A program made the position numbers and the translations under genes. 64,000 bases of DNA from Lentzea guizhouensis (GTDB lineage Bacteria > Actinomycetota > Actinomycetes > Mycobacteriales > Pseudonocardiaceae): the NCBI RefSeq assembly GCF_001701025.1, contig NZ_CP016793.1, positions 8,432,001 to 8,496,000 of the forward strand, read 5' to 3'. Shown here one piece after another: positions 46,240-64,000 of the stretch. The stretch's first letter is position 1, and each line of letters opens with the position of its first letter. Under the pieces are notes generated by a model that had not been told where the DNA came from, made no database searches, and saw only the letters and a program-made list of their open reading frames with translations.

Positions 46240-46323
46240 GGGACCGTCGCTGTTCGGGGTGTGGCACCACCGGGCGGGCCGGGTCATACGGGCGTGCGTA
46301 GACCGCGAGCACGTCCTCGCTTG

Positions 46324-46355
46324 GGCTGGGAGGCCATGACACCAGCCTCCCAGCC
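46324..46355. terminator. Perfect 11-bp hairpin between convergent genes
   Basis: GGCTGGGAGGC (46324-46334) and GCCTCCCAGCC (46345-46355) are exact inverted copies with a ten-base loop. It lies in the gap between the deacetylase gene and the convergent gene ending at 46384, where a bidirectional terminator is expected. Confidence 0.75.
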
Positions 46356-46383
46356 GGTACCACGACTAAGCAGCGACACGCTT

Positions 46384-47340
46384 TTAGTGCGCCCAGCCGA
46401 GGCCGTACGACAGGTGCGCCTCGAGGTCGGTGAACGTGGCCCGCACGTCACCGAAGCGGTCCACCGCCACCGGCTGCCGGCCGTGCGGGTCATCCAGTTG
46501 CAGCGGTGACAGGCCGGCCACGCGCCACAGCGCCGCGGGCCGCCCGCCCTCGGGAAACCTGACGTGCAGGTCGAACCACTCGCACCGGTGCCGCGGTGTG
46601 CACATGTAGAGCGGCTGCAGCGCGCGTTCGGCGGGCAGCGAGATCCGAATGGCGTACTCGTGCTTGTCGCCGCACTGCAGCGGACGCGGCAACCGCAGCA
46701 GGAAAGCGACCCTGTTCACGCCTTTCTGCGCGCTCCCGGAAAGCTTTCCGCCGTAGAACAGATCGACGCCCATGTGTTCCAGCGGAGAACTCGACTGCCA
46801 TCCCTCCAAGGGCGTGAGCGTCATTTCCAGGTCCAGTTCGGTCACGTCGTTGTGCAGCGCCTCGATCTGGCGGATTTCCAGTACTTCCGGCACGGTGAGG
46901 TCGAAGTTCAAGAACACCTGCAACCTGGTGATGCGCCACGAGGCACCGCCCGGCCGGCCCGGCTTCCACCGGGCGGCGAGTTCAGCGAGAGGTTTCATGG
47001 CGGCGTCGATGTGCCGCGTGACCGTCCGCTCCGTGATGCCTTCCGCTTGTGCGAACGCCGCGACGCGCGCCAGGAACCTGCCGGTTTGCCGCCCGGAATT
47101 CCGGTTCACGGAGAATGCCATCACCATCATCGGCCGAACGCGGTCCGGTAGTTGGTCGACGAGGTCGCGCAGCGTGGCGGTCAGCTTGGCCCGCAGCTGG
47201 TCGGATCCGTCGTCCGCGGTCGCCCCGCACAGGTCGCGCAGGGCCGGTCCGACCTGGTGGACGAGGTCGGTGGCACCCAGGGCGTAGCCCTTGCGCAACA
47301 CCTTCAGCTCCTCGAGGAACTGACTGGCCGGCGCATTCAT
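46384..47340 (-). CDS. Unrecognised 318-residue protein
   Basis: I do not recognise the family. The N-terminal half (about 1-145) is helical; RFLARVAAFAQAEGITERTVTRHIDAAMKPLA looks like a DNA-binding or death-fold-like helix pattern. The second half (about 150-318) alternates short strands (RLQVFLNFDLTVPEVLEI, LDLEMTLTPLEGW, RISLPAERALQPLYM) and seems a beta-sandwich. No membrane segment or signal. ATG 47340 follows GGGAGGACCG. It stands next to the small ORF and the NB-ARC regulator and diverges from them, so it may belong to the conflict-type locus that follows; this is inference. Confidence 0.75.
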   Translation of the reverse strand: MNAPASQFLEELKVLRKGYALGATDLVHQVGPALRDLCGATADDGSDQLRAKLTATLRDLVDQLPDRVRPMMVMAFSVNRNSGRQTGRFLARVAAFAQAEGITERTVTRHIDAAMKPLAELAARWKPGRPGGASWRITRLQVFLNFDLTVPEVLEIRQIEALHNDVTELDLEMTLTPLEGWQSSSPLEHMGVDLFYGGKLSGSAQKGVNRVAFLLRLPRPLQCGDKHEYAIRISLPAERALQPLYMCTPRHRCEWFDLHVRFPEGGRPAALWRVAGLSPLQLDDPHGRQPVAVDRFGDVRATFTDLEAHLSYGLGWAH

Positions 47341-47550
47341 CGGTCCTCCCTGTTCCAGCGTGCGCCGAGTGTAGCGACTGTTTCCTCGTTTCCAGTGCAT
47401 TCAGGAAACGGTCAACCCGTTCCCAGCACCACGACGTGCGGTGCATCGTGGAGACGTCCGGAAGAGCGATCCGGAATCCCGAATGACGACCGACCGCCGA
47501 CTCGGCGGCGCGCTGATCCGCGCGTTTTCCAGGATGAGGAGGTGAACGGC

Positions 47551-47598
47551 ATGCACACGCACGTCGTGATTCTGTTCCCCGGCACGCTGCTGGGCTGA
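47551..47598 (+). CDS. 15-residue small ORF with ideal ribosome site
   Basis: Sequence MHTHVVILFPGTLLG, stop TGA. AGGAGG lies eight bases ahead of the ATG, one of the best ribosome sites in the window. It lies 85 bp upstream of the XRE-NB-ARC-TPR regulator on the same strand. It could be a signalling peptide sensed by the TPR domain, a leader peptide controlling the regulator, or a chance ORF. An inverted repeat CCACGA/TCGTGG (47429-47451) lies in the 210-bp gap before it. Confidence 0.45.
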   Translation: MHTHVVILFPGTLLG

Positions 47599-47682
47599 TT
47601 CAAGCCGGCTCCGGTGCGCGCCTCGGTGAAAGCGCCACCCGGAGCCCTACCCACGGCCACCGCCGTGCCGGACGATAACAGC

Positions 47683-49857: not shown

Positions 49858-49912
49858 TGGTGCGGCGTGCGACGTCACCGCGGCGGTCAGCCGGACGGGG
49901 CCCGGCCGCGGT

Positions 49913-50833
49913 TCAGATCCAGCCGCGCTTGGCCGCCGCCACCCCGGCCGCGAACCGGCTGTTCACACCCAGGACCTGGTAGATCGCCTTGACGTGGCGG
50001 CGCACCGTGGTGGTGCTCAGCGCGAGCTTGCGGGCGATCGCGGCGTCGTCACCCGCGAACATCAGCCGGAGCACCGTGCGCTGGGCCGGGGTCAGGGCGG
50101 GCTCGTCACCGCCGCCCGGTGCGATCGTGGCGGCGTCGGCCCACATCAGGTCGAACCACTCGGCGAGCACCGACACGATCGACGGCGTCTGCACCAGGTA
50201 GCCGGTCGAGCGGGCGCCGGAGATCAGTGCCACCTCGTCGTCGACGTGCAGCATCTTCATCGGGATGTCGCGGCGCAGCCTGACCTGTCTACCCGACGCG
50301 GCGGAGTCCTCGATGATCCGGGCGCCGGCCGGGGTGGCGACGCACGTCACGGGGTAGATGATCCGGAAACGCGCGGCACGCGCCTGTCCCCGCACCTCGT
50401 TGATGATGCCGGGGCCGTCGCCGGTCTCGGTGCCGCGCACGTGCTGCTTGGCGGACGGGTACAGCTCCGCGGTGCGGGCGGCCACCTCGTCGAAGCTCTC
50501 CAGCGGGACCACGCCCTCGCACACGCGGCCGCCGAGATCACGCGGTAACAGCGAGGTGAGGCGGGTCCAGCCGTCGAGGACGCGGCGCTGCTGCTCCAGC
50601 AGCTCGTGCTGCCTGCGCTCCAGCAGCAGGCGCAGCGCGGCGGCCTGGTCGACGGGTCGCAGGGTGGCGCCGGAGGACGAGTACACGGCGAGGCCGAGGT
50701 CGAGCAGCTCCGCAGCGGCCGGTGCCCTGGTGTCGGCCGGTGCGTGACCACTGGCGAGCATGCGCAGGAACAACGCCTCCGCGTCCTGGCTGACCAGACC
50801 GGCCAGCGGGCGGCTTCGATCCGGCACGTCCAT
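49913..50833 (-). CDS. LuxR-type regulator with TrmB-like N-terminal domain
   Basis: A 306-residue regulator. The C terminus is a GerE/LuxR helix-turn-helix (about 245-300, LTPAQRTVLRLMFAGDDAAIARKLALSTTTVRRHVKAIYQVLGV). The N-terminal part (about 10-75) is a degenerate winged helix of TrmB type, and the middle (about 110-225) resembles a PLD-like effector domain. No receiver or PAS domain is present. This architecture is frequent next to biosynthetic or conflict loci in actinomycetes. It diverges from the GrpE gene of the Hsp70/GTPase run with a 500-bp regulatory gap, so it is the best candidate for the local regulator. ATG 50833 is preferred over GTG 50836. Confidence 0.88.
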   Translation of the reverse strand: MDVPDRSRPLAGLVSQDAEALFLRMLASGHAPADTRAPAAAELLDLGLAVYSSSGATLRPVDQAAALRLLLERRQHELLEQQRRVLDGWTRLTSLLPRDLGGRVCEGVVPLESFDEVAARTAELYPSAKQHVRGTETGDGPGIINEVRGQARAARFRIIYPVTCVATPAGARIIEDSAASGRQVRLRRDIPMKMLHVDDEVALISGARSTGYLVQTPSIVSVLAEWFDLMWADAATIAPGGGDEPALTPAQRTVLRLMFAGDDAAIARKLALSTTTVRRHVKAIYQVLGVNSRFAAGVAAAKRGWI

Positions 50834-51183
50834 CACGGAACATCCCTCTCATCACGGTTCCGGCCAGCGCGGCGGCAACTCTACGTGACCGCCACGACGC
50901 GCGGGGCCGGAACGGCGGAACTCTCCGACACGAATCCCGTCCGTGCTTCGCCCATCGACGGGAATCCGTTACCAGCCTTCCGTCGTCTGATGCGGAAACT
51001 CCGCGAAGTGCCGTTGTTGTCAACTTTTTGTCGTCTTTTCCGGGACCTGCCACCTCAGTGGCGGATCAGCACCTCCTGAAGGATCCCGGCTGGTACGACC
51101 GGGCCAACTCACGTTGCTCCCAGTCGACCGCACAGCACGAGGAGATTGTGCTCACGCACGCGTAGCACAGCGGCACGAACGCA

Positions 51184-51210
51184 GTCGATGACAACTTGTC
51201 GTCGATGACA
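51184..51210. promoter_or_regulatory. Repeat/dyad in the long gap before the GrpE-Hsp70 run
   Basis: GTCGATGACA occurs twice, 17 bp apart (51184-51193 and 51201-51210), and the piece between them forms a near-perfect dyad GATGACAACTTGTCGTC (51187-51203). A related TTGTTGTCAACTTTTTGTCG lies upstream near 51013. The gap 50837-51340 is about 500 bp, the longest non-coding stretch in the window, and shows no other gene. These are probable binding sites of the divergent LuxR-type regulator or of a heat-shock repressor. Confidence 0.5.
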
Positions 51211-51340
51211 GCAAGTGGCCGGAGCACCCCGGAGCTGCATCGATCGGGCTAAGAATTGACGCCGAAATCCGGGTAACGCGCCGCGCGGCAGGCACGAACA
51301 AAGCAGTACCCGGAACGCGGTTAATCAAGGGGTTGGTGGC

Positions 51341-52051
51341 GTGCAGGACGCGTCCGAAGGACTCGTTTCCGTACGGGACGAAGAGTCCGAAGAGCAGACG
51401 GAGACGGAAAATGCCCAGGTGGGGGAATCAATAGCCGAAGACGGTGATGTGGCGTCAAACGATGACACTGAGCAATCAGGCCGACCGGACGACCGGCTGG
51501 CCGAACTGGTCGCGATCACCGGTGAGCTCGTCGAGCAGACCCGTGCCCACCACGTCCGCGCGGCCGCCCGCGAGAAGGTGATCGACAACCTCCACGAGGA
51601 GGTGCAGCGGCTGCGCGTCGGCGAGCAGGCCCTGTTGTTGAGACCGCTCGTCGTGGACCTCCAGACGCTGCGCAACGACCTGCTGCGGCAGGCGCGCACG
51701 GTGCCGGAGCAGCTGTCCGCACGGCAGGCGGCGGACCTGCTCGAGTCGTTCGCGCTGAGCGTCGAGCAGACGCTCGAGCGGTGCGGTTGCACGCCGGTGC
51801 GGCCGGAACCGGGAACGCCGTTCTCCGCCCGTGACCACCGCGCGGTGAAGGTCGTCGCGGCAGCGAGCGCCGAGGAGGACTCGACGATCGCCGAGGTCGT
51901 GGCGGACGGCTACCACGACGCGAACCTCGGCCGCGTCACCAGCCCGGCGCGCGTGCACGTGCGCAAGTGGCCGGGAGCGGCGGCGGAAGACCCACCGGAA
52001 CGTGCCGGGAACGGCGCGACGCAACAGGAGAAGGGCGAAGAAGGTGTCTGA
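51341..52051 (+). CDS. GrpE-like nucleotide exchange factor for Hsp70
   Basis: A 236-residue protein. The acidic, disordered start (about 1-48, rich in Glu/Asp) is followed by a long coiled coil (about 50-110, TRAHHVRAAAREKVIDNLHEEVQRLR) and a small beta domain (about 140-205, GYHDANLGRVTSPARVHVRKW), the layout of GrpE. The central four-helix part is less conserved than in housekeeping GrpE, so this is a dedicated partner for the Hsp70 next to it, where it should speed ADP release. GTG 51341 follows AAGGGG. It overlaps the Hsp70 start by eight bases. Confidence 0.85.
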   Translation: MQDASEGLVSVRDEESEEQTETENAQVGESIAEDGDVASNDDTEQSGRPDDRLAELVAITGELVEQTRAHHVRAAAREKVIDNLHEEVQRLRVGEQALLLRPLVVDLQTLRNDLLRQARTVPEQLSARQAADLLESFALSVEQTLERCGCTPVRPEPGTPFSARDHRAVKVVAAASAEEDSTIAEVVADGYHDANLGRVTSPARVHVRKWPGAAAEDPPERAGNGATQQEKGEEGV

Positions 52052-53678
52052 CGACGGCTTCCGCGTGTACGGGATCGACCTGGGCACGACGTACTCGGCG
52101 ATCGCCTACGTCGACGAGGTCGGCAAGCCGGCCGTGTGCCGCAACACCGACAGCGTGGAGACCACGCCGTCGGTGGTGTTCTTCGAGAACGCCGACAACG
52201 TCGTGGTCGGTTCGGTGGCCAAGAACTCCGTGGTGACGCACGGAGATCGGGTCGTGTCGCTGATCAAGCGGCAGATGGGCACGAAGGCGACCTACGAGTT
52301 CGACGGCAAGACCCACACCCCGGAGTCGATCTCCTCGCTGATCCTGCGCCAGCTCGCGCAGGACGCGGCCGACCTGCACGGCTCCCCCGCCAGCAAGGCG
52401 GTGATCACCGTGCCCGCGTACTTCGGCATGCTGGAGCGCGACGCCACCAGGACCGCGGGCGTGCTTGCCGGTCTCGACGTGATCGGCATCGTGCCGGAGC
52501 CGGTCGCCGCGGCACTGCACTACGAGGCGACGACCGGCGCGTCGGACAAGACGATCCTCGTCTACGACCTCGGCGGCGGCACGTTCGACACGACCGTCAT
52601 CTCGGTGTCGGCCGACGAGATCGAGGTGCTGTGCACCGACGGCCACGACCACCTCGGCGGTGCCGACTGGGACGCCCGGCTGCACCGGCACCTCATGGAC
52701 GCGTTCCGGGAGCACGTCCCGCCGGACGTCGACCCGGAGGACGACGAGGAGTTCCTGCAGACGCTCGCCAGGATCGCGGAGGACACCAAGAAGCAGCTGT
52801 CCAAAGTGGAGTCACGGCCGGTTCCGCTGCGCGGAGCCGGGGTGAGCGCACGCGTCGAGGTCACCCGCGCCGAGTTCGAACGGCTGACCGAGGACCTGCT
52901 CGCCAACACGGTCGAGATCGTGCGCCGCACGCTGGACACGTTGCAGCAGAAGGCACCGGGCCGCAAGATCGACGAGGTGCTGCTCGTCGGCGGCTCGACG
53001 AAGATGCCGGCCGTCGCGGCCCGGCTGCGCGAGGAGTTCGGCTGGGACCCCAAGCTGCACGACCCCGACCTCGCGGTCGCGAAGGGTGCCGCGCTCTACG
53101 CGCTCGGCCGGGTGGTGCACCGGGAGGCCGAGCACAAGGGCGTCGAGGCCGCCGTCGAGACGATCGCGACGCAGACCGGCATCTCGACGCAGAAGCTGCG
53201 CACCATCGCCAACAAGGAGACGCGCAACGTCCTGCCGAAGGCGTTCGGCGTGAAGTTCGTCGACACCGACGACCCGGACTGGCGCTCCAAACCGACCAAG
53301 CACTACGTCGCGCACCTGGTGCACGCCAACGACTCGCTGCCCGCGAGGGGTGAGGTCACCGCGGAGACGCTCTACGACGGCCAGACCGCGGTGGAGATCG
53401 AGCTCTACGAGCAGTCCGGTGTGGTCGCCGGTCGCGAGATGGAGGAGAACAAGCACCTCAACGACGGCGCGGGCGCCATCGAAGGGTTGCCGTCGCTGCC
53501 GGCCGGGTCGCCCGTCGAGATCAAGATGGACGTGGACAACGAAGGCCTGCTCCAGGTGCACGCCAAGGAGGTCTCCACCGGGAAGGACCTGCTGATCAAG
53601 GTCCGGGTGAGCGTGCTCAGCACGGAGGAGGTCGAGGAGGCGGCCAAGGTCGTCGCGGGCCTGACGGTGTCGAGCTGA
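52044..53678 (+). CDS. Hsp70 family chaperone (locus-specific DnaK-like)
   Basis: A 544-residue Hsp70. All nucleotide-binding signatures are visible: phosphate 1 GIDLGTTYSAIAYVDE, connect 1 IVPEPVAAALHYE, phosphate 2 VYDLGGGTFDTTVI, adenosine VLLVGGSTKMPAVAARL. The substrate-binding beta domain (about 380-520) has LPSLPAGSPVEIKMDVDNEG. The C-terminal helical lid of DnaK is missing, so it is shorter than housekeeping DnaK (about 610-640) and probably serves specific clients. The segment HLGGADWDARLHRHLMDAF is normal. It overlaps GrpE upstream and shares TGATG with the gene downstream, marking one operon. Confidence 0.95.
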   Translation: MSDDGFRVYGIDLGTTYSAIAYVDEVGKPAVCRNTDSVETTPSVVFFENADNVVVGSVAKNSVVTHGDRVVSLIKRQMGTKATYEFDGKTHTPESISSLILRQLAQDAADLHGSPASKAVITVPAYFGMLERDATRTAGVLAGLDVIGIVPEPVAAALHYEATTGASDKTILVYDLGGGTFDTTVISVSADEIEVLCTDGHDHLGGADWDARLHRHLMDAFREHVPPDVDPEDDEEFLQTLARIAEDTKKQLSKVESRPVPLRGAGVSARVEVTRAEFERLTEDLLANTVEIVRRTLDTLQQKAPGRKIDEVLLVGGSTKMPAVAARLREEFGWDPKLHDPDLAVAKGAALYALGRVVHREAEHKGVEAAVETIATQTGISTQKLRTIANKETRNVLPKAFGVKFVDTDDPDWRSKPTKHYVAHLVHANDSLPARGEVTAETLYDGQTAVEIELYEQSGVVAGREMEENKHLNDGAGAIEGLPSLPAGSPVEIKMDVDNEGLLQVHAKEVSTGKDLLIKVRVSVLSTEEVEEAAKVVAGLTVSS

Positions 53679-56324
53679 TGGCCGCACTGGACCCGAAGGC
53701 CTACGAGGAGGCCGTCGTCAAGCCGCTGAAGCGGCGGTCCGCCGGTGCGCTGCCCGACGACCTCGTCTCCCGCTACGCCGTCGACCTGTCGATGTCGGAC
53801 GCGGACGTCGTGCGGCGCCTCGCCGAGATCAGGTCGACCTGGAACAAGGGCGCGCTGGCGCAGAACAAGCCCACCTCGGTGAAGAGCGTCTACAAGGCGT
53901 TCCTGCGTGCGGACGAGGCACTGCAGCGCGAGCACGGCGCGGCCCTCGGCCGGATCGACTGGTGGCGGCAGCACGCCGCCTCGCGGAAGGGTTCGCGCAC
54001 CGCCCAGATCGACGAGCTCGCGCAGACGCTGCGGACCGGGTTCGGTGACCTCGGCCTGGTGTCGAAGGGACAGCTGAAGGCGTTGCTGGACGCGGAGTTC
54101 GCGTCGCTGGCGCCCGACGAGGTCGCCCAGGCGCTGGCCGCGGCAACGGTCAGCGAGGTCGACCCGATCGGTCTGCCGCAGAGCAGCGGCCTGCCCGACG
54201 TGCAGTACCGCGAGCTCGAACGGGGCCTGCTCGACGCGGACCTGAGCAGCGTGCCCGAGCTCGTGCACGGGCCGCTGAAGTCGTTCACCGTGCTGCGCGA
54301 CTTCACGAGCGACCCGCCAGCCCGGGGCGGCCTGACCGCCACGGCGGTCGCGGCCGCCGTGGACCGGGAGAACCGCAGGTCGGGCAACCAGGCGGCGCGC
54401 CAGGCGTTGAACATCCTGTCGACGGCCGCGCGCAACCAGGTCGACCTGCGCGAGCTCGCGTTGTTCCACCTGCTGGAGGACGTGCGGTCGCACCACCGCA
54501 ACGGTGTGCCGACCGTGGCGCTGCTCAAGCGCCTCACCGCCAAGGGACTCGCCCGCGACGACGCCCGGCAGGCCGTCTTCAGCGTGCTCAACGAGTCCGC
54601 GCGGGCTCCGGTCACCGGGCTGGCCGCGGTGAAGGCGCTGCTGGAGGAGGGCAGGCTGGTCGCCGCGCAGCAGATGCTCGGCACCATCACCGGCTCCGAG
54701 GACGCCACCGCCGCGCGCGCCCTCGTGGACCAGCAGGTCGCGCAGACGCGCAAGAACCGGACGGACGCGCTCGCGGCGCTGCGCCGCGGTGACGAAGACG
54801 AGGCACGACACCAGCTCCGGCAGGCGGTCGCGCTCGCGTCCGACGACGCGGAGCTGGCCGCCGAGCTCGGCCGCATCCCGCTGCGCCGCCGCTGCAGCTG
54901 ACCCGCACCCGGTCTCGGTGTGCGGTTGTCGTGGCGCGCGCGTGAGCCACGACGACCAGACCCGCTACCGGTGGTGCGGCAGGACGGTCGCACGCCCGGC
55001 GACCCGGCGACGGCGCTGTGGTGCACGAGGGACGGGCTCGGTCGCGCTCGACCGCAAGGCCGCGGCGGGCAGGCTGGTCGGCTACGCGGTGTTCGCCGCC
55101 GGCGACGGGGGTGGCTCGTGGTCGCGGCCCGTCACGGCGACCATCGAGGTGCTGCCGCCGGTGCACGACGTCACGCTGTCGGTCGAGGACGCGGTGGTGA
55201 GCGCGCGCTGGCAGGTGCACCCCGACGCGTCCTCCGTCGAGGTGACGCGCACCGGAGGCGCAGCCGTGCGCTCGAGCGGCAAGACGACGTTCACGGACCG
55301 GTTGGAGGGCAAGGGAGACCACTCCTACACCCTCGTCGCGTGCTACCGGCGCGCGGACGGCGGCGTCGCCAGGGCCGCGGCCGTGCAGGTCCGCGCGTCC
55401 AGCCGGACCGCGGTGGCACCCGTCACCGCGCTGCGGCTGGCTCCGGTCACCGACGGCACGCCGACGGTGGCAGCGACCTGGCGGCAGCCGGAGCCGGACA
55501 CGGAGGTCGTGCTGCGCCGCGCGGACACACCGTGCCCGTGGGAGTTCGGCGCGGTCGTGCCGGTCCCCGACGTGTTGTCCTACGGCACGGAGGTGACCGG
55601 GTCGCTCAGCGACGACGGCGAGTGGCGCACGCTCACCGCGGCCGTGCCGACCGGCCTGTTCTGGTACGTGCCGTTCACCATGAGCCCCAACGGCGCGTTG
55701 CGCGGGCAGGACGCCTCGCTCGGCATCGCGTTGCCCCTGACCGACGTGCGGCACCAGCGGTTCGGCCACGAGCACGTCGTGTCGTGGGTGTGGCCGGAGG
55801 CGGCCGGTGTCGCCGAGGTCCGGTGGACCTGCGGCGAGCAGAAGGGCAAGACCCGGCTCACCCGGCAGCAGTACCAGCTGGCCGGCGGTTTCCGGTTGCG
55901 CTGCGACAAGGGCGAGCTGCGGGTGCGGGTGCGCAGCGTGGTCATGGCCTCGGACGGCGAGTGCGTGTCCGCGGACAGCGAGCTGGTCGTGCCGCCGGCA
56001 CCGCCGCGGCTGCGCTACTCCGTCGAGCTGGCGCGCAGGCCGTTGCTGGGCGGCGGAACCGTGCGCGTGCGGCTGAGCGCCGAGGAGCCGGTGCACCGCT
56101 GCACCGTGCTCGTGGTGGTCGCCGCCGGGGCCGTGATGCCGCGCCGGCCCGACGACGGCGTCGTCGTCCTGCGCAGCCCGCAGGACGTGCGGCCGGAAGC
56201 CGAGATCGAGCTGAGCGCCGAGCTGCCGAAGCTGCGCAAGCCCTACTGGATCAGGTGCTTCCTCGAGGAGGAGGGCGTCGCCCTGCTCGTCGACCCACCG
56301 ACCAAGCAACTGAAGGTGTCCTGA
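53678..56324 (+). CDS. Helical plus fibronectin-III protein of the Hsp70/GTPase locus, frame broken near 54,900-55,060
   Basis: Translation starts at an ATG that overlaps the Hsp70 stop. The first ~400 residues (53678-54901) are helical, rich in RRS/RAL repeats, with a TPR-like C-terminal piece (ALAALRRGDEDEARHQLRQAVAL). The frame then stops, while a beta-rich C-terminal part in another frame (about 55030-56324) contains fibronectin-III-like repeats (LVGYAVFAAGDGG, PPVHDVTLSVEDAVVSARW, HEHVVSWVWPEAAGVAEVRW). In between, family-like pieces (TRYR, VVRQDGRTPGDP, GDGAVVHEG) alternate between three frames, so several bases appear lost and the natural gene is probably one of about 880 codons. Function unknown; a scaffold or substrate adaptor for the chaperone is plausible. 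It overlaps the GTPase gene by one base. Confidence 0.75.
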
Positions 56325-57523
56325 TGGCCAAGGCCTCCTGTCCCTACTGCTACCACCGGATCGACCTGGCAAAGCTGCGGTTCCAGTGCACCGGCCGCGC
56401 GACTCCCGGCCGTGACCGGTGCCGCCGCGAGGTGGACGCCGACCGGCAGCGGCTCACCGGCTTCTCCGGCGCGACCTACCCGACGTTCACGGCACCGGAG
56501 ACGCGCAACCCGCTGCCGCAGCGGCTCGCGCCCTGCCCCGCGTGCGGCGGGTCGTCCGGCATCCGTGCCTGCCAGGTGTGCCACACGCCGTTGCCGGCGA
56601 ACTTCGCCGACAGCCGCAGCCCGCTGATCGCCATGGTGGGCGGGAAGAACGCGGGCAAGACCGTGTTCACGACGGTGCTCGTGCACGAGCTGCGGCACAA
56701 CATCCGGCGCCGGTTCGCCGCCGACATCTCGTTCGCGGGCGACCGCCAGGGCGGTGACGTGTCGATCACGGGCTGGCTGGAGAGCTACGAGAACATGCTG
56801 TTCGGCGAGAACAGGCTCCTGGCCCAGACCACGGCGGCGGTGGACGGCGTCAAGGTGCCGCTCGTCCTGCAGTGGCGGCAGGCCCGGCGCGTCCTCGGCC
56901 GGGAGGTGCACCAGACCAGCACGCTGTCGTTCTACGACGCGGCCGGCGAGGACATGACCTCGCAGGAGTTCGTCAACGCGCAGGCGTACCTCGCCGCGGC
57001 GGACGGGCTGATCGTGCTGCTGGACCCGTTCCAGCTCAAGGGCGCCCGCGACCGCATCTCGATCCCGCGCATCGCGCAGCGCGACACCGAACCGCCGTAC
57101 AACGTGCTCAGCCGCATCACCGAGCTGCTGCGCACCAGCCACGGCATCAGCGTCCGACGCAAGATCAAGATCCCGGTCGCCGTGGTGTTCTCCAAGATCG
57201 ACGCGTTCTTCCAGGTGCTGGGCGAGGGGCATCCGCTGCTGACCCGGCCCGCCACCGGGCCGTTCTACGACGAGAGCAACGGCGACGACACCAACGAGCA
57301 CATGCGCGCGCTGCTCACCGAATACGACTCCGACGACGTCGACGCCCACCTGAGGGCGCACTACAAGACGTTCCGGTACTTCGCGGTGTCGTCGCTCGGT
57401 GCCGAGCCGGACTACGAGCAGTCCCGGGTCAGCGCGGGCGGGGTACGTCCGTTCCGGGTGGACGAGCCGCTCCTGTGGTTGCTCTCCCTCGACAAGATCA
57501 TCGAGAGCAGGAAGACGGCATGA
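56324..57523 (+). CDS. TRAFAC-clade GTPase with N-terminal zinc ribbons (DO-GTPase2-like)
   Basis: A 399-residue soluble GTPase. Two zinc-ribbon pairs open the protein (CPYC at 6-9, later CPAC at 71-74 and CQVC at 83-86). The P-loop is GGKNAGKT (106-113), switch II DAAGED starts at Asp205 and the base-specificity motif is SKID (290-293). The long insert between P-loop and DxxG and the terminal FRVDEPLLWLLSLDK helix are typical of the bacterial double-GTPase families tied to GAP1 proteins. It should act as a GTP-driven switch. ATG 56324 overlaps the stop of the gene in front; its own stop overlaps the GAP1 start. Confidence 0.88.
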   Translation: MAKASCPYCYHRIDLAKLRFQCTGRATPGRDRCRREVDADRQRLTGFSGATYPTFTAPETRNPLPQRLAPCPACGGSSGIRACQVCHTPLPANFADSRSPLIAMVGGKNAGKTVFTTVLVHELRHNIRRRFAADISFAGDRQGGDVSITGWLESYENMLFGENRLLAQTTAAVDGVKVPLVLQWRQARRVLGREVHQTSTLSFYDAAGEDMTSQEFVNAQAYLAAADGLIVLLDPFQLKGARDRISIPRIAQRDTEPPYNVLSRITELLRTSHGISVRRKIKIPVAVVFSKIDAFFQVLGEGHPLLTRPATGPFYDESNGDDTNEHMRALLTEYDSDDVDAHLRAHYKTFRYFAVSSLGAEPDYEQSRVSAGGVRPFRVDEPLLWLLSLDKIIESRKTA

Positions 57524-59640
57524 GCACCGGGTTCTCCTCGCTCTACTACACCGACTGCCTGCCGGGCCAGGGCCTGCGCGGCGGCGGGGGTTTCCAGTTC
57601 CAGGCCGTGTCGGCCGGTGTCGGGCACGACGAGATGGCGCTCGTGCAGCGGTCCTCCCTGTACGAGGCACCGTCGGCGTGGATGCGGGAACGCCGTCCCG
57701 TCGAGGAGTACCCGCCGTCGCTGACCCACGTCGCGGACGGGGTCTTCGCGACGGCACGCGGCATCTACCTCGGTGCCGAGGCGAGCGGAGCGCGCGAGGG
57801 CAACCAGTTCACCCACGCGGTGACGACCGCCGACCCGGACGCCTACGGCGAGGTCCGGCCGGCACAGCTGTGGGACGCGCCGTGGTGGGTGGAGACGCCG
57901 GCGCCGACCACACAGTGCGAACCGGTGCCCGCGGCGCCCGAACACGGTCCGTGGGGCCGCGACGCGGTGCGCGAGTGGGTGCTCGGCAAGCCGGACGGGC
58001 AGGAGTGGCTCACCGCGCTGCTCTCCGCGCTGGACCGGGTCGGCGGGCCCGGCGGGAAGCGGATCGTGTTCGTCGCCGAGGACGCGGCCGACGTCCTGGG
58101 CTGGCTCACCGCGGGCACGCTGCTGCTGCCTCAGAACCGCGCGCTGCGGATCAGCTTCCGGGTGTTCGCCACGAGCCCGCAGTACAGCAGGCACGACGTG
58201 ATCGCGTTGCACCCCGACTGGGCGGGGTCGTACGCGGAGGTGCGGCGTGACGACGAGTTCGTGGTGCTCAACCTGGTGAGCGGCGAGCGTTCGGAGGTCG
58301 CCCCGACCGAGGCTGCGGCGCACTGGGTGCCACGGTTCCTGCGGCACGACCCGTATGACGTCGTTGACGCCGTGGAGTGGGCGGACGGGAGCGCGCGGAC
58401 GCGGGGGGAACCCGAGGACGTGGGTGACCGCGTGGCCGGCTGCGTCGTGACGCTCGGAGAGGAGGCCGACGGCCCCGCCGCGGGTGCGGCCCTCGCGACA
58501 TGGCTCGCGGCCGCACCGGTCGAGTCCGTCGAGGACTACCGGACGGAGCTCGTCGCGGCCGCGCTGGCCGGCGAGCGACGTGGAGTCGCTGGGTGCTCGA
58601 CGGCGCGGTGCGGCGTCACGGCGTTCCGCTCGGCCTCGCGGCCACCGTGCGGCACAAGCTGCTCGTCGCCGAGGTGAACGCCGCTGGCCGGCGGACCGCC
58701 GCCGTCGCTCCGCAGTGGACCGTCGACCCGACGGCGGGCGATGGCCACCGTGGTGGAACGGGCGCGGACGAGGTGCGGCCCGAGCTTGGACGCGGCGCTG
58801 GCGGCCGCGGCCGTGGCGCACGGGGACACCCGCGTGCGCACGGCGGTCATCACCCGCGTGCTCGGGCTGACCCGCCGCGACGACGTCGCGTGGCGAGCGT
58901 TGTTCGGGACGGCCACGCCGACGACCGCCGAGGTGCTGAAGGTCCTCACGACCTACGAGCGGACCTCGAAGGACGTCGCCGAGGCGGTGTTCGGTGCGCT
59001 GAAGACCCTCGGGCGCGCCGAGCTCGACGTGCTGGCGATGCTCGCGGACCGGCGGCACCTGCCGACCACGGCCGGGTGGCGCCGGGTCGTCGAGGACGAC
59101 CTCAGGCTCCGCGGATGGCTGGACCGCCCGTCGGCGCGCACGGCGAGCGAGCTCGAGAAGGTCCACGACACCGCGGTGACCGCCCGCGCGCACCAGATCG
59201 TGCACGTCCTGCTGGAGAAGGCCGGGACGGAGACCGCCGCCGCTGCCGTCCGCCACGCCGGTTCCGCGGTGCTCGCCGTCCTGTGCCGGGAACTGCCGCG
59301 CCGCTGGGCGCAGTCGGATGCCACCGCCGCGCGCGCCGTCGGGCTCGCTTACCTGGCGGCGTCGTCGGATCACTGTGCGGAGGCCCTGACCGACGAGGTG
59401 GAGAACCGGCTGGGCCGGTTCGCGGTCACGGCGAAGGAGGAGCGGATCGCCGAGATCGCCCAGATGCCGGGCCTGCTGAGCCGCCGGGAGGCGGCGGACT
59501 GGCTCCGGTTCGTCGCCGGGATGCGGCAGCACCACGCGGAGTCCCGCAAGCGGAGCGCGAAGCCGGTACCGCGCAGCCCGGCCAAGAAGCCCCCGCCCAG
59601 GGCCGGACTGTGGCCGTTCAGCCGCAAGGGAGGTGACTGA
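57520..59640 (+). CDS. GTPase-associated protein 1 (GAP1)-like protein, interrupted by two frameshifts
   Basis: Starts at the ATG of ATGA shared with the GTPase stop. The N-terminal part (FSSLYYTDCLPGQGLRGGGG, FQFQAVSAGVG, ALVQRSSLYEAPSAWMRER) is the GAP1-N2 pattern; the middle (about residues 140-330, DAADVLGWLTAGTLLLPQNR, RISFRVFATSPQYSRHDV) is the GAP1-M type, and the helical C terminus (58741-59640, LSRREAADWLRF) the GAP1-C type. After residue ~350 the frame slips near 58575 (WVLDGAVRRHGVPLGLAA lies in a second frame) and again near 58740 into a third frame that continues to 59640. The restored protein has about 707 residues. GAP1 proteins always travel with TRAFAC GTPases, as here on both sides. 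Confidence 0.82.
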
Positions 59641-59644
59641 AACC

Positions 59645-61246
59645 GTGCACTACCTCGTTTTCATCGTCGCGGCCATGATCGGGCTCGCCCTCGCCCTGTG
59701 GGTCGCGCTCTGGCTGTTCATGTTCCTCTTGCTGCCGGTGCTGTACGTCTTGATGCCCGTGGCGCTGGTGGCCGGAGCCGTGGTCGGGTTCGTCCGCTAC
59801 GGCACGACACTGCTGGGCCTGGGCTCGGCCGCGCCGCGGCTCGTCACGCCGGACGACGTGGTGGCCGGCCGGTCCCTGCCCGCGGTGAAGGGCCCCTTCA
59901 GCAGGGACCGCGCCTGGCCCGTCTACCCCGCGGCGCAGGGGTGGGTTGACCTCGTCGCGGCGTCCCGGTCGGTCGGTCTGGTGGTGAAACGGGTCTGGGC
60001 CGAGGTCGTCCGGCGCACGAAGGCGTACGGCTACTGGTGGGCGTGGGTTCTCGTCATCGCGACGGTGTTCCCCGTGGTGGCGGCCTTCACCGCTGGTGCC
60101 GCCGCCGTGGTGGCGTCGCTGGCCGCGCTGAGCACCGTCGTGCTGGTCGCCACCGACCTGGTCTGGGGTCTGGTGTCCGCGCTCCTGCGCGGACTGGACT
60201 CCCTGGTGCGCAGACTGCGCAGGGCGACGGGGAGCTGCCCCGTCTGCTACCACGTGACCGCGTTGCCGGCGTTCCCGTGCGGCGGGTGCGGCGAGGTCCA
60301 CCGGGACCTGCGTCCTGGCCGGCTGGGCGGCGTGTGGAGGCGGTGCGGATGCGGCGCCTCCCTGCCCACCACGGTGCTGCGGGCCGCACACCGGATCGAG
60401 CCGCGCTGTCCGCGGTGCGCCGAGCCGTTGCGCACGGGCGGCGCGGTCATCACGGACATCCGGCTGCCCGTGTTCGGCCCGGTGTCGGCGGGCAAGACGC
60501 GGCTGGTCTACGCGGGCCTGGTCGCGTTGCGCGACGAACTGGCCTCGGCGGGCGGCGAGCTGTCGTTCGTCGACAACGACAGCAGCGCGGTGTTCGCCGA
60601 CGCCAACGCGGTGATCACCTCGGGTCAGGACACGGTGAAGACCCCGGCGGCCACGCTGCCGCACGCGCTGACCGCGCGGCTCACGAGAGGCCGCAAGCGC
60701 GCGTTGCTGCACCTGTTCGACGCGGCCGGAGAGTTCTACACCGACAGGGAGGACAACAGCGACCTGGAGTTCCTCGACCACGCCCCGGGGCTGGTGTTCG
60801 TGGTCGACCCGTTCTCGGTTCCGTGGGTGCGCGACCAGCTCGGGTCGCACGGCGCGGAGCAGGTGGCGCGAGCGCGACCGGCGAACGCCCACCCCGACGC
60901 GGTGTACCAGGTGACGGCGAGGCGGTTGCGCGACTACGGCGTCGAGACCCGTCGCCGCAACCTCGCGATGACCGTGGTGAAGGCCGACCTGCTCGCCGGT
61001 CTCGCGCCCGGTGACGGACTGCGGCGCGGGGCGGTCAGGGACTGGCTCTGCGAGGCGGGGCTGGACAACCTCGTGCTGTCGGCCGAACGCGACTTCGGCG
61101 AGGTGCGCTACTTCGTGGCCGCGTCGGTGCCGGGACACGCCTCGGGTGAGGACATGCGGCCGTCGGCTCCGTTCCGGTGGCTCATCGGCAAGAGCGGTGC
61201 GAGCGACCTGCTGCCCACCGGTCGCACTCAGGAGGAGAAGGTATGA
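59645..61246 (+). CDS. Membrane-anchored TRAFAC GTPase with zinc ribbons
   Basis: About 533 residues from GTG 59645, which has AAGGGAGG nine bases ahead; an in-frame GTG at 59633 also exists. Two hydrophobic hairpins (about 1-55 and 128-178) insert it in the membrane. Zinc ribbons follow (CPVCYH, CGGCG, RCGCG, CPRCAEP; about 196-262). The GTPase domain has P-loop GPVSAGKT (278-285), DAAGE at 359 and a VVKAD G4 motif (Lys446, Asp448). A membrane counterpart of the soluble GTPase at 56324, so the locus encodes a two-GTPase pair. It overlaps the next gene by 4 bases. Confidence 0.85.
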   Translation: MHYLVFIVAAMIGLALALWVALWLFMFLLLPVLYVLMPVALVAGAVVGFVRYGTTLLGLGSAAPRLVTPDDVVAGRSLPAVKGPFSRDRAWPVYPAAQGWVDLVAASRSVGLVVKRVWAEVVRRTKAYGYWWAWVLVIATVFPVVAAFTAGAAAVVASLAALSTVVLVATDLVWGLVSALLRGLDSLVRRLRRATGSCPVCYHVTALPAFPCGGCGEVHRDLRPGRLGGVWRRCGCGASLPTTVLRAAHRIEPRCPRCAEPLRTGGAVITDIRLPVFGPVSAGKTRLVYAGLVALRDELASAGGELSFVDNDSSAVFADANAVITSGQDTVKTPAATLPHALTARLTRGRKRALLHLFDAAGEFYTDREDNSDLEFLDHAPGLVFVVDPFSVPWVRDQLGSHGAEQVARARPANAHPDAVYQVTARRLRDYGVETRRRNLAMTVVKADLLAGLAPGDGLRRGAVRDWLCEAGLDNLVLSAERDFGEVRYFVAASVPGHASGEDMRPSAPFRWLIGKSGASDLLPTGRTQEEKV

Positions 61247-61413
61247 AGTACGACCCGCCACTCGCCTACCGCGTGCACCGGATCACGCTGGTGGGGCTCT
61301 TCGCCTTGGTGGCACTGGTCTTCTGCCTCGGCGTGGCGGTGGCCGCCGAGCCCTTCTGGCACTCGATCACCGACCTGGCCGTGTCCCTGCGCGACCGGTG
61401 GCGGTCGTGGTGA
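61243..61413 (+). CDS. 56-residue single-pass membrane protein
   Basis: Sequence begins MKYDPPLAYRVHRITLVGLF and contains one strong transmembrane helix (about 15-36), then an Arg/Trp-rich tail ending DRWRSW. GGAGGAG lies just before the ATG, which overlaps the stop of the GTPase gene (ATGA); its own TGA overlaps the GTG of the second Hsp70. So small and so tightly packed, it is probably a membrane subunit or anchor for the GTPase or the Hsp70. No known family. Confidence 0.8.
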   Translation: MKYDPPLAYRVHRITLVGLFALVALVFCLGVAVAAEPFWHSITDLAVSLRDRWRSW

Positions 61414-62792
61414 TCCTGGGAATCGACCTCGGCACGACCTACACCGTGACCGCGGACATCAGTGCCGGCGGGCGTCCGGTCGCGCTGCCCAACTCGCTCG
61501 GCGAGTCCACGACGCCGTCCGTCGTGCACTTCGAGTCGGCGAACCGGGTGCTGGTCGGCAGCGCGGCCCGCAACGCGGCCACCGTGGAACCGGACAACAC
61601 GGTGTCGTTGATCAAGCGCCGCATGGGCGACGAGCTCGACCTGTACTTCCACGGCGTGCGGCACACACCGGAGTCGATCTCGGCGCTGGTCCTGCGCGGA
61701 GCCGTCGGCGACACCGCCGGAGTGCGGGCCGTGATCACCGTGCCGGCCTACTTCGGCATCAGGGAACGCGAGGCCACGTTCCAGGCGGCCGCGCTGGCCG
61801 GCATCGAGGTGCTGGAGCTGCTGAGCGAACCCGTCGCCGCCGCCCTGCACTACAGCACGGCGGTGCCGGACGCCGCGAGCACGACACTGGTCTACGACCT
61901 CGGTGGCGGAACGTTCGACACCACGGTCCTGCGCGCGGGAGACCACGGCGTCGAGGTCGTGGCCACCGACGGTGACAGCCACCTGGGCGGGGCGGACTGG
62001 GACGAACGGGTCAGGGAGTTCTTGCTGGAGAGCTTCGCGCAGGCCGTGCCCGACGTGGACCCCTACGAGGACGAGGTGTTCCTCAGCGAGCTGACCGCTC
62101 TGGCGGAGAAGGCGAAACGCGATCTCAGCCGGGTCTCGTCGCGCTCCGTCGTGCTGCGCTGCGGCGGCGCGTCGACCTCGGTGGAGCTCGACCGGGCCGC
62201 GATCGCGGACATGGGCGCCGACCTGGTGGACATCGAGCGGCTGGTCGAGCGACTTCGCCGTCGCCTCGCGCGATCCGCCCACCAGCTGGCGGGTACCGGC
62301 GCGCTGCGCAAGGCGGGCGGCCGGCTGGCGGTGATCGCGGACCAGCCGACGCGGTCGGTCGTGCCGCGCAGCTTCGGCGTGCTGGTGGAGGACAGCCACG
62401 ACCCGTCGGGGCAGGGCCGGGTCGTCGTGCACACCGTGCACCAGAACGACCCGTTGCCCGCGACGGCCACCAGCCGGTTCTGCACGATCGTCAACCGCCA
62501 GGACCGGGTGCGCGTGCAGGTCTACGAGCAGGCCGGTGACGTGCCGTCGGCCGACGTCGCGCACAACCGGCGCGTCCTCGACGGTGAGCTGAGCGGCCTG
62601 CCGCCACTGCCCGCCGGCTCGCCCGTGGAGGTCACGCTCAGCGTCAGCACCGATGGCCTGCTCTCGGTGACGGCACGTGTGCCGCGCAGCCGCAGGAAAC
62701 TCGAGCTCCAGTCCTATGTTGACGGTGTGGTGGACGGCAGCGCGCACGCGGAGCTGGCCGCCACGCTCGCCGCGGTGGAGGTGAGCCAGTGA
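61410..62792 (+). CDS. Second Hsp70 family protein, shortened, lacking the adenosine motif
   Basis: A 460-residue Hsp70 paralogue. Phosphate 1 (GIDLGTTYTVTADI), connect 1 (SEPVAAALHYST) and phosphate 2 (VYDLGGGTFDTTVLRAG) are intact. Where Hsp70 number one has VGGSTKMPAVAARL and about 70 further residues, this protein goes directly from AIADMGADLVDIERLVERLR to LAGTGALRKAGGRLAV, so the adenosine-binding motif is missing. The beta domain (about 330-445) is present. Either it is a pseudo-chaperone with altered nucleotide handling, or a ~200-bp in-frame piece was lost from the sequence. Starts at the GTG of GTGA shared with the gene in front. Confidence 0.85.
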   Translation: MILGIDLGTTYTVTADISAGGRPVALPNSLGESTTPSVVHFESANRVLVGSAARNAATVEPDNTVSLIKRRMGDELDLYFHGVRHTPESISALVLRGAVGDTAGVRAVITVPAYFGIREREATFQAAALAGIEVLELLSEPVAAALHYSTAVPDAASTTLVYDLGGGTFDTTVLRAGDHGVEVVATDGDSHLGGADWDERVREFLLESFAQAVPDVDPYEDEVFLSELTALAEKAKRDLSRVSSRSVVLRCGGASTSVELDRAAIADMGADLVDIERLVERLRRRLARSAHQLAGTGALRKAGGRLAVIADQPTRSVVPRSFGVLVEDSHDPSGQGRVVVHTVHQNDPLPATATSRFCTIVNRQDRVRVQVYEQAGDVPSADVAHNRRVLDGELSGLPPLPAGSPVEVTLSVSTDGLLSVTARVPRSRRKLELQSYVDGVVDGSAHAELAATLAAVEVSQ

Positions 62793-63413
62793 GCACCTGG
62801 GTCCGCAAGAACTTCGACGGCATCGGTGTGACCCAGTCACCGCCCGGCCCGCACCTGGCGGCGTTGCAGTCCCGCTACGGCGGCACCGTGCTGCTGTGCA
62901 TCGACGTCAGCGGGTCGATGAGCGGGAAGCGGCTGCGCCAGGCCGTCGACGGCGGGGTGGCGTTCCTCGACGAGGCCGCGAACGCGCACTACCGCTGCGG
63001 TCTGGTCCTGTGGAGCGACCGGGTCGACCGGTACCTCGGCCCCGACCAGCCGCACGCCCGCGTGGTCCGCGGCCTGCGCGGCGCCTCGATCCACGGGGAC
63101 GAACCTGATCCCCGCACTGCGCAAGTGCAAGGACGTGTACGGCTCCATGACCGGTGACCGGGTGGTGTGCATCTTCAGCGACGGCGAGATCCCCCGCGTC
63201 GGCGAGGCCGAACGCATCGCCCGTGAGCTGTGCGCGATGGGCGTGCGCATCGTCGTGCGCGGCCTGGGCCGGGGAGCGGCGCACACCCTGGCGCGGCTGA
63301 CCTGCCCCGGCAGCGACGACGACCGGCAGGTGATCGTCGACGAGGCGAGCATCCGCGCCGGCATCGAGTCGATGGCGCGAGGCCTGACCTCCAGAGCGAA
63401 CGGAAGTGGCTGA
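62789..63413 (+). CDS. von Willebrand factor A domain protein, split by a frameshift near 63,095
   Basis: GTG 62789 overlaps the Hsp70 stop. The first part (122 residues) has a complete MIDAS opening, LLCIDVSGSMSGKRLRQAV, which binds a metal ion and a protein ligand. The frame slips at GGGG near 63095: GTNLIPALRKCKDVYGSM, VVCIFSDGEIPRVGEAERIA and the rest up to 63413 lie in another frame. Restoring two bases gives a normal vWA domain of about 208 residues. Such domains in these loci bind other locus proteins through the metal site, often as assembly or substrate-recognition partners. Confidence 0.85.
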
Positions 63414-63415
63414 TC

Positions 63416-63592
63416 GTGTTCCCTCCCCCACCACCTCCGCCCAGGCGCACGACGGTGTGGACCTGCCCCGTGGACGGCTGCGGTTACCAGGAGCTCGGGC
63501 CGGACGAGCGCCCGCTGGGCGACGGTGTGTGCGAGAAGACCTCGGCGCACCGCGACCAGCGGCTGGTGCGCAGACGCGGACCCGGCGGGTGA
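63416..63592 (+). CDS. 58-residue mini zinc-ribbon protein
   Basis: Starts at GTG 63416, two bases after the vWA stop. A run of prolines (FPPPPPPPRR) leads to TCPVDGCGYQELG and a later VCEKTSAHRDQRL, a Cys/Cys/Cys/His set that probably binds one zinc. It has no membrane segment. It may bind a partner in the complex; no family name can be given. The next gene starts 4 bp downstream. Confidence 0.7.
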   Translation: MFPPPPPPPRRTTVWTCPVDGCGYQELGPDERPLGDGVCEKTSAHRDQRLVRRRGPGG

Positions 63593-63595
63593 ACC

Positions 63596-64000
63596 GTGGA
63601 CAAGATCGTCGGTGAGCTCCTCGGCCCGTTCGCGCGGCGGCTGGCCGCCTCCGCGTCCATCGCGACGGTGACCTTCTGGGTGGTCGGCGTGGTGTTGTTC
63701 TTCTGGCTGCACCCGCAACCGCTGCCGGGCTGCCCGTCCGGTGGCAAGGACCTGTGCGGTGCCCTGACCGGTGGCTGGGCTCGCGCCGTGCCGCTGCTCG
63801 CCTGCCTGACCGGCGCGATGGTGCTGTCGTACTGCCTGCTGTTCAGCCAGGCCACGTCGGCCACGTCGGTGCTGACCGGCGCGGACTGGCCGCGCTGGCC
63901 GGGGCGGGCCGGCCGGTGGCTCGAGAGCAAGCGCCGCAAGCACACCAAGCGCCAGGCGGCGTTGACACCTCCGGTGCGCCGGGCGCAGGCGGGCCTGCGG
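63596..64000 (+). CDS. Membrane protein, N-terminal part (runs off window)
   Basis: GTG 63596, four bases after the stop of the mini zinc-ribbon gene, opens a frame that continues to the window edge (135 codons). Two transmembrane helices are visible, IATVTFWVVGVVLFFWLH and PLLACLTGAMVLSYCLLF, with a Cys-containing loop (PGCPSGGKDLCG) between them, then a basic stretch (RWLESKRRKHTKRQ) that should face the cytoplasm. Location and spacing make it a further member of the Hsp70/GTPase operon, possibly with a larger cytoplasmic domain beyond the window. Confidence 0.75.
   Translation, partial: MDKIVGELLGPFARRLAASASIATVTFWVVGVVLFFWLHPQPLPGCPSGGKDLCGALTGGWARAVPLLACLTGAMVLSYCLLFSQATSATSVLTGADWPRWPGRAGRWLESKRRKHTKRQAALTPPVRRAQAGLR

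What the first reader, a model, noticed from the sequence alone, without database searches (positions are those of the whole stretch)
51341..64000. Twelve-gene, overlapping Hsp70/two-GTPase/GAP1/vWA operon
GrpE, Hsp70, helical-FN3 protein, zinc-ribbon GTPase, GAP1-like protein, membrane zinc-ribbon GTPase, 56-aa membrane protein, second Hsp70, vWA, mini zinc ribbon and membrane protein follow each other with start/stop overlaps of 1-8 bases or gaps of a few bases. Established: GAP1 and double-GTPase families are known from comparative genomics as parts of predicted NTP-dependent conflict systems of multicellular bacteria, without a solved mechanism. Inference: a chaperone-gated GTPase switch, soluble GTPase to membrane GTPase, with vWA and Hsp70 as client handlers. 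Two Hsp70s, one with its own GrpE, plus two GTPases in one operon is unusual. The end lies outside the window.
Basis: partly seen in the sequence, partly recalled or inferred. Interest (0 to 1): 0.9.

Follow-up and report, generated by a model that had tools for sequence, protein, structure and literature searches.

The report
Damaged GTPase-chaperone defence operon with protease
A soil actinomycete carries what looks like a damaged copy of a predicted cell-defence operon built from GTPases and Hsp70 chaperones; copies in its relatives are often linked to a second gene cassette that encodes a predicted protease, a further Hsp70 and usually a predicted NAD-destroying toxin.

Summary
The operon is real and of a published class: GAP1-N2/DO-GTPase systems of the Hsp70-GrpE type (Kaur et al. 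2020). GrpE-Hsp70-FN3-GTPase1-GAP1-GTPase2 stand in order in 30 of 37 related loci. Two corrections. First, this copy looks broken: FN3, GAP1, vWA and a convergent third Hsp70 carry frameshifts, and the second Hsp70 is about 45 residues short; relatives are nearly always intact. It sits in an accessory block of about 25 kb. Decay and assembly error cannot be separated here. Second, the system continues past the window. A CHAT protease gene followed by its own Hsp70 lies beside the operon in 23 of 33 operon genomes of the family, and that Hsp70 (59% identity or more) was found in none of the other 357. In 21 of 23 a helical and a RES-type protein follow. A second clade has a TIR-CHAT protein at an extra Hsp70, 5 of 5. 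Predicted GAP1 resembles DENN GTPase regulators (suggestive). Proposed: GTPase/GAP1 switch, Hsp70-restrained CHAT protease, NAD depletion. No experiment.

The parts
46219..64000 (.). in-window part of an accessory block (to window-scale 71389, G000:C1:8503389)
   Evidence: in G007 (L086) and G002 (L089) sequence matching window up to 46218 runs straight into that matching 71388-71390; of 16 same-genus loci compared by blastn none aligned to the operon, one (L100, G001) to the CHAT gene
49913..50836 (-). LuxR-type regulator (GerE HTH), divergent from the operon; relatives at the same place in four other genera
   Evidence: PF00196 8e-9; 36-50% identical in genera g38, g44, g45, g51; not seen in the g12 and g60 stretches
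51341..52051 (+). GrpE-like nucleotide exchange factor
   Evidence: PF01025 1.1e-8
52044..53678 (+). Hsp70a, one open frame, about 544 aa
   Evidence: PF00012 2.4e-96; no frame change
53678..56324 (+). FN3 protein (helical N half, then FNIII repeats); broken here between about 54930 and 55050
   Evidence: relatives one ORF, mostly about 760-910 aa; fold of a relative
56324..57523 (+). DO-GTPase 1 with N-terminal cysteine pairs, one open frame
   Evidence: PF19993 3.4e-8; cysteines by eye
57520..59640 (+). GAP1 (N2-M, C part); broken here at about 58570-58770
   Evidence: PF20013 1.2e-35, PF20014 1.5e-18; homologues of 791-797 aa, 83-89% identical over the first 349 residues
59633..61246 (+). 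DO-GTPase 2 with N-terminal hydrophobic segments, one open frame
   Evidence: PF19993 1.5e-22
61243..61413 (+). 56-aa one-pass membrane protein
61410..62792 (+). Hsp70b; about 45 residues short, adenosine motif of relatives missing
62789..63413 (+). vWA protein; frameshifted near 63090
63416..63592 (+). short zinc-ribbon-like protein
   Evidence: cysteine pattern by eye
63596..64000 (+). membrane protein (continues to window-scale 64483); stands where relatives have HEL-RES
   Evidence: among the loci scanned a homologue only in G186 (L050/L117)

Best explanation
A damaged, island-borne copy of a two-part predicted defence system. Part 1 is the published GAP1-N2/DO-GTPase switch of the Hsp70-GrpE type: the FN3 protein senses, GAP1 regulates the paired GTPases (one soluble, one in the membrane), Hsp70a-GrpE sets a threshold. 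Part 2 is a linked cassette CHAT -> Hsp70c -> HEL -> RES: the CHAT protease is the relay, Hsp70c holds it or its client inactive, and the released RES enzyme depletes NAD, arresting the infected hyphal compartment. Shown: gene content, conservation, linkage, interruptions in the sequence as held. Predicted from families: protease and NAD-degrading activities. Inferred: the wiring, HEL as antitoxin or adaptor, and anti-phage use. In this genome the switch looks non-functional: GAP1 and FN3 are interrupted, and a membrane protein stands where HEL-RES would be.
For: Family hits. Core order in 23 of 23 nearer and 30 of 37 loci in all. Operon (GTPase 2, E 1e-60) in 33 of 390 family genomes; Hsp70c at 59% identity or more in 23 genomes, all among those 33; a CHAT match on the same strand 16-234 bases before the Hsp70c match in 23 of 23. 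Order CHAT-Hsp70c-HEL-RES in 21 of 23, RES by Pfam in 16 of 23. Cassette turned to the operon's strand in G266 and G271. No ORF shared between six genera in 11 flanks beyond the cassette. CHAT His and Cys in 13 of 13 aligned, 12 of them from cassettes, and in the 4 clade-B proteins viewed. Second clade: TIR-CHAT-AAA-TPR protein between two Hsp70 genes in 5 of 5 genomes examined. In class-level G552 and G608 a CHAT gene lies about 0.8 and 2 kb beyond GTPase 2. Interruptions.
Against: No expression, interaction or phage data. HEL matches no Pfam, NCBIfam or PDB family. 5 of 21 RES-like proteins are recognised only by my own HMM, seeded from these loci; several have lost positions conserved in the others. 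In G377, G374 and G389 HEL-RES stands 3-4 kb from Hsp70c with other genes between (coordinates). 10 of 33 operon genomes lack Hsp70c; three of these also lack GrpE-Hsp70a (L073, L076, L077). G552 and G608 have CHAT without an extra Hsp70, HEL or RES in the stretch read. The interruptions could be sequencing errors. No PADLOC model matched ten window proteins.
Confidence: 0.55

Rival explanations
1. The frameshifts are assembly or sequencing errors and the operon of this strain is intact.
For: Four frame changes in about 110 bases of FN3 look like a low-quality stretch; the pieces remain open and conserved; at least one flanking gene is also split; uninterrupted GAP1 proteins 83-89% identical exist in other strains.
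Against: 2 of 46 flanking genes split against 4 of 10 system genes frameshifted; the roughly 45 residues missing from Hsp70b and the residues missing from GAP1 are not single-base errors; Hsp70b, and in G182 also vWA, are split in G182 and G392 too.
Confidence: 0.4
2. A proteostasis or envelope-stress module, not a defence system.
For: Hsp70, GrpE, vWA and membrane GTPase fit stress signalling; no defence library hit.
Against: Patchy presence (33 of 390 family genomes), island-like insertion, variable neighbours with RES, TIR-CHAT, CHAT or membrane proteins.
Confidence: 0.25
3. The CHAT-Hsp70c-HEL-RES cassette is a passenger that sits beside the operon without functional coupling.
For: 10 of 33 operon genomes lack it; CHAT relatives also occur alone.
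Against: Hsp70c (59% or more) was not found without the operon in 390 genomes; linkage survives inversion and change of flanks; a separate clade pairs an extra Hsp70 with a CHAT protein and two class-level loci have CHAT beside the operon.
Confidence: 0.2

Closest known systems
[quoted passage not shown] abstract, outline and passages seen, not the whole text, figures or source data)
   Same: DO-GTPases, one with membrane segments; GAP1 N2-M-C; FNIII protein; Hsp70 and GrpE; a second Hsp70 in a subset; actinobacteria
   Different: Second Hsp70 keeps the beta part of its binding domain in this clade (paper: without it); no J-domain detected; linked CHAT-Hsp70-HEL-RES cassette, for which the paper's main text has no 'CHAT' and no 'RES domain'; this copy interrupted
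GAP1-N1-type systems (same paper, passages)
   Same: caspase-superfamily and TIR effectors next to a DO-GTPase/GAP1 pair
   Different: other GAP1-N subtype, GASH protein, mostly other phyla
RES-type NAD-depleting toxin-antitoxin modules (search listing only, e.g. PMC11535050)
   Same: RES domain by Pfam in 16 of 23 cassettes
   Different: partner HEL matches no antitoxin family in the libraries used; placed behind a CHAT protease and an Hsp70 gene
CoCoNuT systems (PMC11090510, passages)
   Same: Hsp70-like proteins, vWA and GTPase together in a predicted defence system
   Different: McrB GTPases, RNA targeting, different genes
Eukaryotic DENN modules (PMC3521125, abstract and passages)

Membership tests
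GAP1-N2 GTPase-centric system | DO-GTPase (PF19993) | tested here: met
   two hits over cut-off
GAP1-N2 GTPase-centric system | N-terminal zinc ribbons on the GTPase | tested here: inconclusive
   cysteine pairs by eye; only a sub-threshold ribbon hit in a relative
GAP1-N2 GTPase-centric system | GAP1 with N2, M and C domains | tested here: met
   N2 and M in own; N2, M and C in an intact relative; own gene interrupted
GAP1-N2 GTPase-centric system | FNIII-repeat protein | tested here: met
   fold of a relative's protein; many relatives carry PF25832, called a SaeA Fn3-like domain in source names there
GAP1-N2 system, Hsp70 theme | Hsp70 and GrpE in the operon | tested here: met
   30 of 37 loci
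GAP1-N2 system, Hsp70 theme | second Hsp70 without peptide-binding domain (a subset only) | tested here: not met
   Hsp70b of relative L052 matches the Pfam profile to position 504 of 599
GAP1-N2 system, Hsp70 theme | FNIII protein fused to DnaJ or TPR | tested here: inconclusive
   only sub-threshold TPR hits, no J-domain hit
[quoted passage not shown]
   hydropathy finds two long N-terminal stretches (1-57, 133-188), no C-terminal one
CHAT protease | CHAT domain with catalytic His and Cys | tested here: met
   PF12770 1.2e-33 for the gene beyond the window; His/Cys in 13 of 13 aligned; their catalytic role is recalled
RES toxin | RES domain over cut-off | tested here: met
   in relatives only: 16 of 23 cassettes; this genome's cassette has none
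Xre/MbcA/ParS antitoxin (HEL) | Xre_MbcA_ParS_C domain | tested here: not met
   no Pfam or NCBIfam hit at E 10; no PF09722 in 5 genomes searched
DENN module | longin plus DENN fold acting on a small GTPase | tested here: inconclusive
   top rows; Foldseek E 2.6e-2 for 8p0v; no profile match; activity not testable

The most novel reading that the evidence does not exclude
GAP1 is a bacterial DENN-like GTPase regulator (longin plus alpha/beta domain, as in Rab GEFs and the folliculin complex) that, with two GTPases, gates an Hsp70-restrained CHAT protease whose cleavage frees a RES or TIR NAD-destroying enzyme: a chaperone-thresholded protease-to-NAD-depletion immune cascade, and a prokaryotic relative of a regulator module known from eukaryotes.
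Probability: 0.22. Interest if true: 0.92.

Novelty: new variant of a known kind. Interest (0 to 1): 0.66.

Why it matters
GAP1/DO-GTPase systems have been predicted since 2020 to be immune switches, the GAP1-N2 type above all in multicellular bacteria; the passages I read name no effector like these for the Hsp70 theme. A CHAT protease with a dedicated Hsp70, followed by a RES protein in 21 of 23 cassettes, names concrete effectors and clients and makes the model testable with two biochemical assays (proteolysis, NAD loss). If GAP1 is DENN-like, the switch also gains a mechanism for its regulator. For this genome the practical message is that its copy is a poor choice for experiments until resequenced: uninterrupted orthologues exist, for example in Saccharopolyspora and Amycolatopsis.

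Tried and rejected
PADLOC scan of ten window proteins: no hit (CHAT and RES proteins were not scanned there). tRNA and Rfam scans of the window: none, so no sign of integration at a tRNA. Foldseek on GAP1: no hit at E 1e-3, mostly helical-repeat proteins; 8p0v (DENND10 entry) at rank 25. Profile of GAP1 against PDB sequences: three chance-level rows. HEL as a known antitoxin: not supported; its resemblance to MbcA-type antitoxins is recalled only, and the HEL profile matched nothing beside the other RES gene in four genomes. RES against PDB sequences: nothing. Programmed frameshifting: set aside, relatives have single frames. Literature: first search listed 20 papers, of which I opened only Kaur 2020; searches for DO-GTPase/GAP1/Hsp70/phage, CHAT/Hsp70/GrpE, CHAT/RES/NAD and Hsp70/CHAT/GTPase gave no paper on this cassette as far as the listings show (only CoCoNuTs opened); searches on bacterial DENN/longin listed none that describes one (only PMC3521125 opened); 'SaeA' searches gave nothing useful. 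Dropped rows: the GTP1 and vWAb queries were out of frame and are superseded; the own_a row was cut out of frame and is not used. G102, a further genome with one weaker Hsp70 hit, has the core but its flank was not read.
Full report
What is there. The window is bases 8432001-8496000 of a single contig of 10.0 Mb. With starts chosen from alignments the junctions are -8, -1, -1, -4, -8, -4, -4, -4 bases, then gaps of 1 to 3. The run goes on to 64483 on the window scale. Of the 120 GAP1 proteins listed, the five closest to this one are two unnamed ones (89% identical over the first 349 residues) and three named Lentzea (83-85%). I infer a Lentzea-like organism; this was not tested otherwise.

This copy is interrupted. 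FN3, GAP1, vWA and the convergent third Hsp70 each fall into two ORFs here. A frame-tolerant alignment places four frame changes in FN3 within about 54930-55050 (three references agree); in GAP1 three, two and none with three references, at about 58570-58770, with missing residues in all three; one in vWA near 63090; one in the third Hsp70 near window-scale 64930; Hsp70b is about 45 residues short, the longest gap being 25-31, and the part missing includes the motif LVGGS of relatives. In 23 relative loci (L049-L071) FN3 and GAP1 are single ORFs in 23 of 23, Hsp70c in 15 of 15 where present, vWA in 12 of 13 and Hsp70b in 12 of 14. Control: 46 genes of this genome within 123 kb have orthologues (70% identity, 80% cover) in a 119.5-kb stretch of same-genus genome G007; 2 are split, one probably an antisense ORF, and 1 of 47 is split the other way. 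Against 4 frameshifted of 10 testable system genes Fisher's p is 0.007; the system genes had to be compared with more distant relatives, so the two tests are not quite alike. This favours decay but does not exclude a poorly assembled stretch.

It lies in an accessory block. In G007 (L086) and G002 (L089) sequence matching window bases up to 46218 continues directly with that matching 71388-71390, a gene I take for argininosuccinate synthase from its sequence. None of 16 same-genus loci compared by blastn aligned to the operon; G001 has a CHAT gene (45-47% identical) alone at that place. Of 390 family genomes 33, this one included and the other same-genus genomes not, have a GTPase 2 match at E 1e-60 or better. 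At E 1e-3, 7 of 23 same-genus genomes have more distant relatives of it, 28-37% identical, some of them the second clade below.

The operon is conserved as a unit. GrpE-Hsp70-FN3-GTPase1-GAP1-GTPase2 stand in order on one strand in 30 of 37 fetched loci: all 23 of L049-L071, and L072, L074, L075, L078-L081. The other seven are L073, L076, L077 (no GrpE-Hsp70) and the distant L082-L085. In Actinomycetes at large 8 of 335 genomes gave an Hsp70 match at E 1e-130; of 7 such neighbourhoods read, 6 have the full core and L127 all but a recognised GrpE, while an eighth ended at a contig edge. These were chosen by their Hsp70, so they do not measure how common the operon is. Hsp70b and vWA are a less constant extension. 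A LuxR-type gene divergent from GrpE (49913-50836) has relatives at that place in four other genera, not in the g12 and g60 stretches read.

A second operon belongs to it. Beyond the window, convergent to the operon, lie a third Hsp70 and, upstream of it on its strand, a CHAT protein of about 1170 residues (PF12770 1.2e-33). An Hsp70c at 59% identity or more occurs in 23 of 390 family genomes, all among the 33 with the operon (the search scored three candidates a genome; eight further genomes with matches at 46-52% are the operon's own or other Hsp70s); on the same contig in 22 of 23, 1.5 to 10.5 kb from GTPase 2; and a CHAT match stands on the same strand 16-234 bases before the Hsp70c match in 23 of 23. 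By random placement, 23 of 23 within 33 of 390 has p 1e-29, though the genomes come from only seven genera and are not independent. In genus g51 (G266, G271) the cassette is turned round, and in 11 flanks of 3-8 kb from six genera no ORF beyond the cassette is shared between genera at E 1e-15, so the link is not general synteny. After Hsp70c follow a helical protein of about 215 residues (HEL) and a RES-type protein: in 21 of 23 by profiles built from these loci (19, G233 and G391; in G377, G374 and G389 about 3-4 kb further on, past other genes), and RES by Pfam in 16 of 23 (15, G233). In the 47 genomes searched for RES, 34 have one or two, one has three, 12 none. The two cassettes without HEL-RES are this genome's and that of G186; both have a related membrane protein there.

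A second, more distant clade repeats the theme. In G009, G003, G136, G407 and G015 an extra Hsp70 and the GrpE-Hsp70-FN3-GTPase operon enclose a protein of 1750-1900 residues with TIR, CHAT, AAA and TPR domains on the opposite strand (5 of 5 examined). The CHAT His and Cys are present in the 4 of 5 whose sequence I viewed. At class level, G552 and G608 have a CHAT gene about 0.8 and 2 kb beyond GTPase 2, with no extra Hsp70, HEL or RES in the stretch read; the CHAT list was capped, and the other class-level loci showed no CHAT in the stretches read. Both clades thus bring a CHAT domain together with an extra Hsp70 and a domain of a NAD-cleaving family (RES or TIR). That RES and TIR enzymes degrade NAD is literature knowledge (search listing; TIR also in PMC7159879, passages).

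Mechanism. Most likely the FN3 protein and GAP1 form the sensor and regulator of the GTPase pair, with Hsp70a-GrpE as an energy-driven threshold, much as proposed in print for such systems. The new piece is the output: a CHAT protease whose activity, or whose substrate, is held by its own Hsp70, acting on HEL-RES so that RES depletes NAD. The evidence is genomic only. Rivals are given above. In this strain, if the sequence is right, GAP1 and FN3 cannot be made whole, no HEL-RES is present and Hsp70c is interrupted, so the system should be inactive, although GTPases, Hsp70a, GrpE and CHAT remain open.

Known and new. The switch is a member of a published class, with one published subset feature not met (second Hsp70 without binding domain). 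The CHAT-Hsp70-HEL-RES cassette is not named in the main text of the defining paper (no 'CHAT', no 'RES domain'; figures and source data not seen), and the listings of my searches showed no other paper on it.

Noticed in passing
L057 335-1297, L067 538-1500, L065 1174-2217, L069 468-1610 (oriented loci): A weaker second RES-like ORF lies upstream of GrpE in genera g51 and g38.
   Followed up: no
L100 / G001:C11:71639-75067: Same-genus G001 has a solitary CHAT gene at the same site, without operon or Hsp70c: the site may be a hotspot.
   Followed up: partly
L110 4630-5700: Two further small TIR-domain ORFs (E 4e-28 and 1.5e-28) sit next to the extra Hsp70 in G009.
   Followed up: no
window-scale 90287-92808 (L107): A flanking gene of 846 aa in G007 is also split in this genome, a hint that the assembly may hold other frame errors.
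   Followed up: no
L054 (G182) and L066 (G392): Hsp70b, and in G182 also vWA, are split in relatives too, so this extension seems to decay repeatedly.
   Followed up: partly
P0062, P0169: Proteins of the uncultured clone 'esnapd2' match both GAP1 and Hsp70c, so the system seems to have been cloned in an environmental library.
   Followed up: no
L116 13155-13817, L114 15181-15960: RES-like proteins of G144, G155, G266 and G271 have changed positions conserved in the others; the two tested by Pfam were not recognised: possibly inactive.
   Followed up: partly
L145 6501-9656, L146 12305-17281: CHAT genes beside the operon in class-level G552 and G608, without an extra Hsp70 in the stretch read.
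   Followed up: partly
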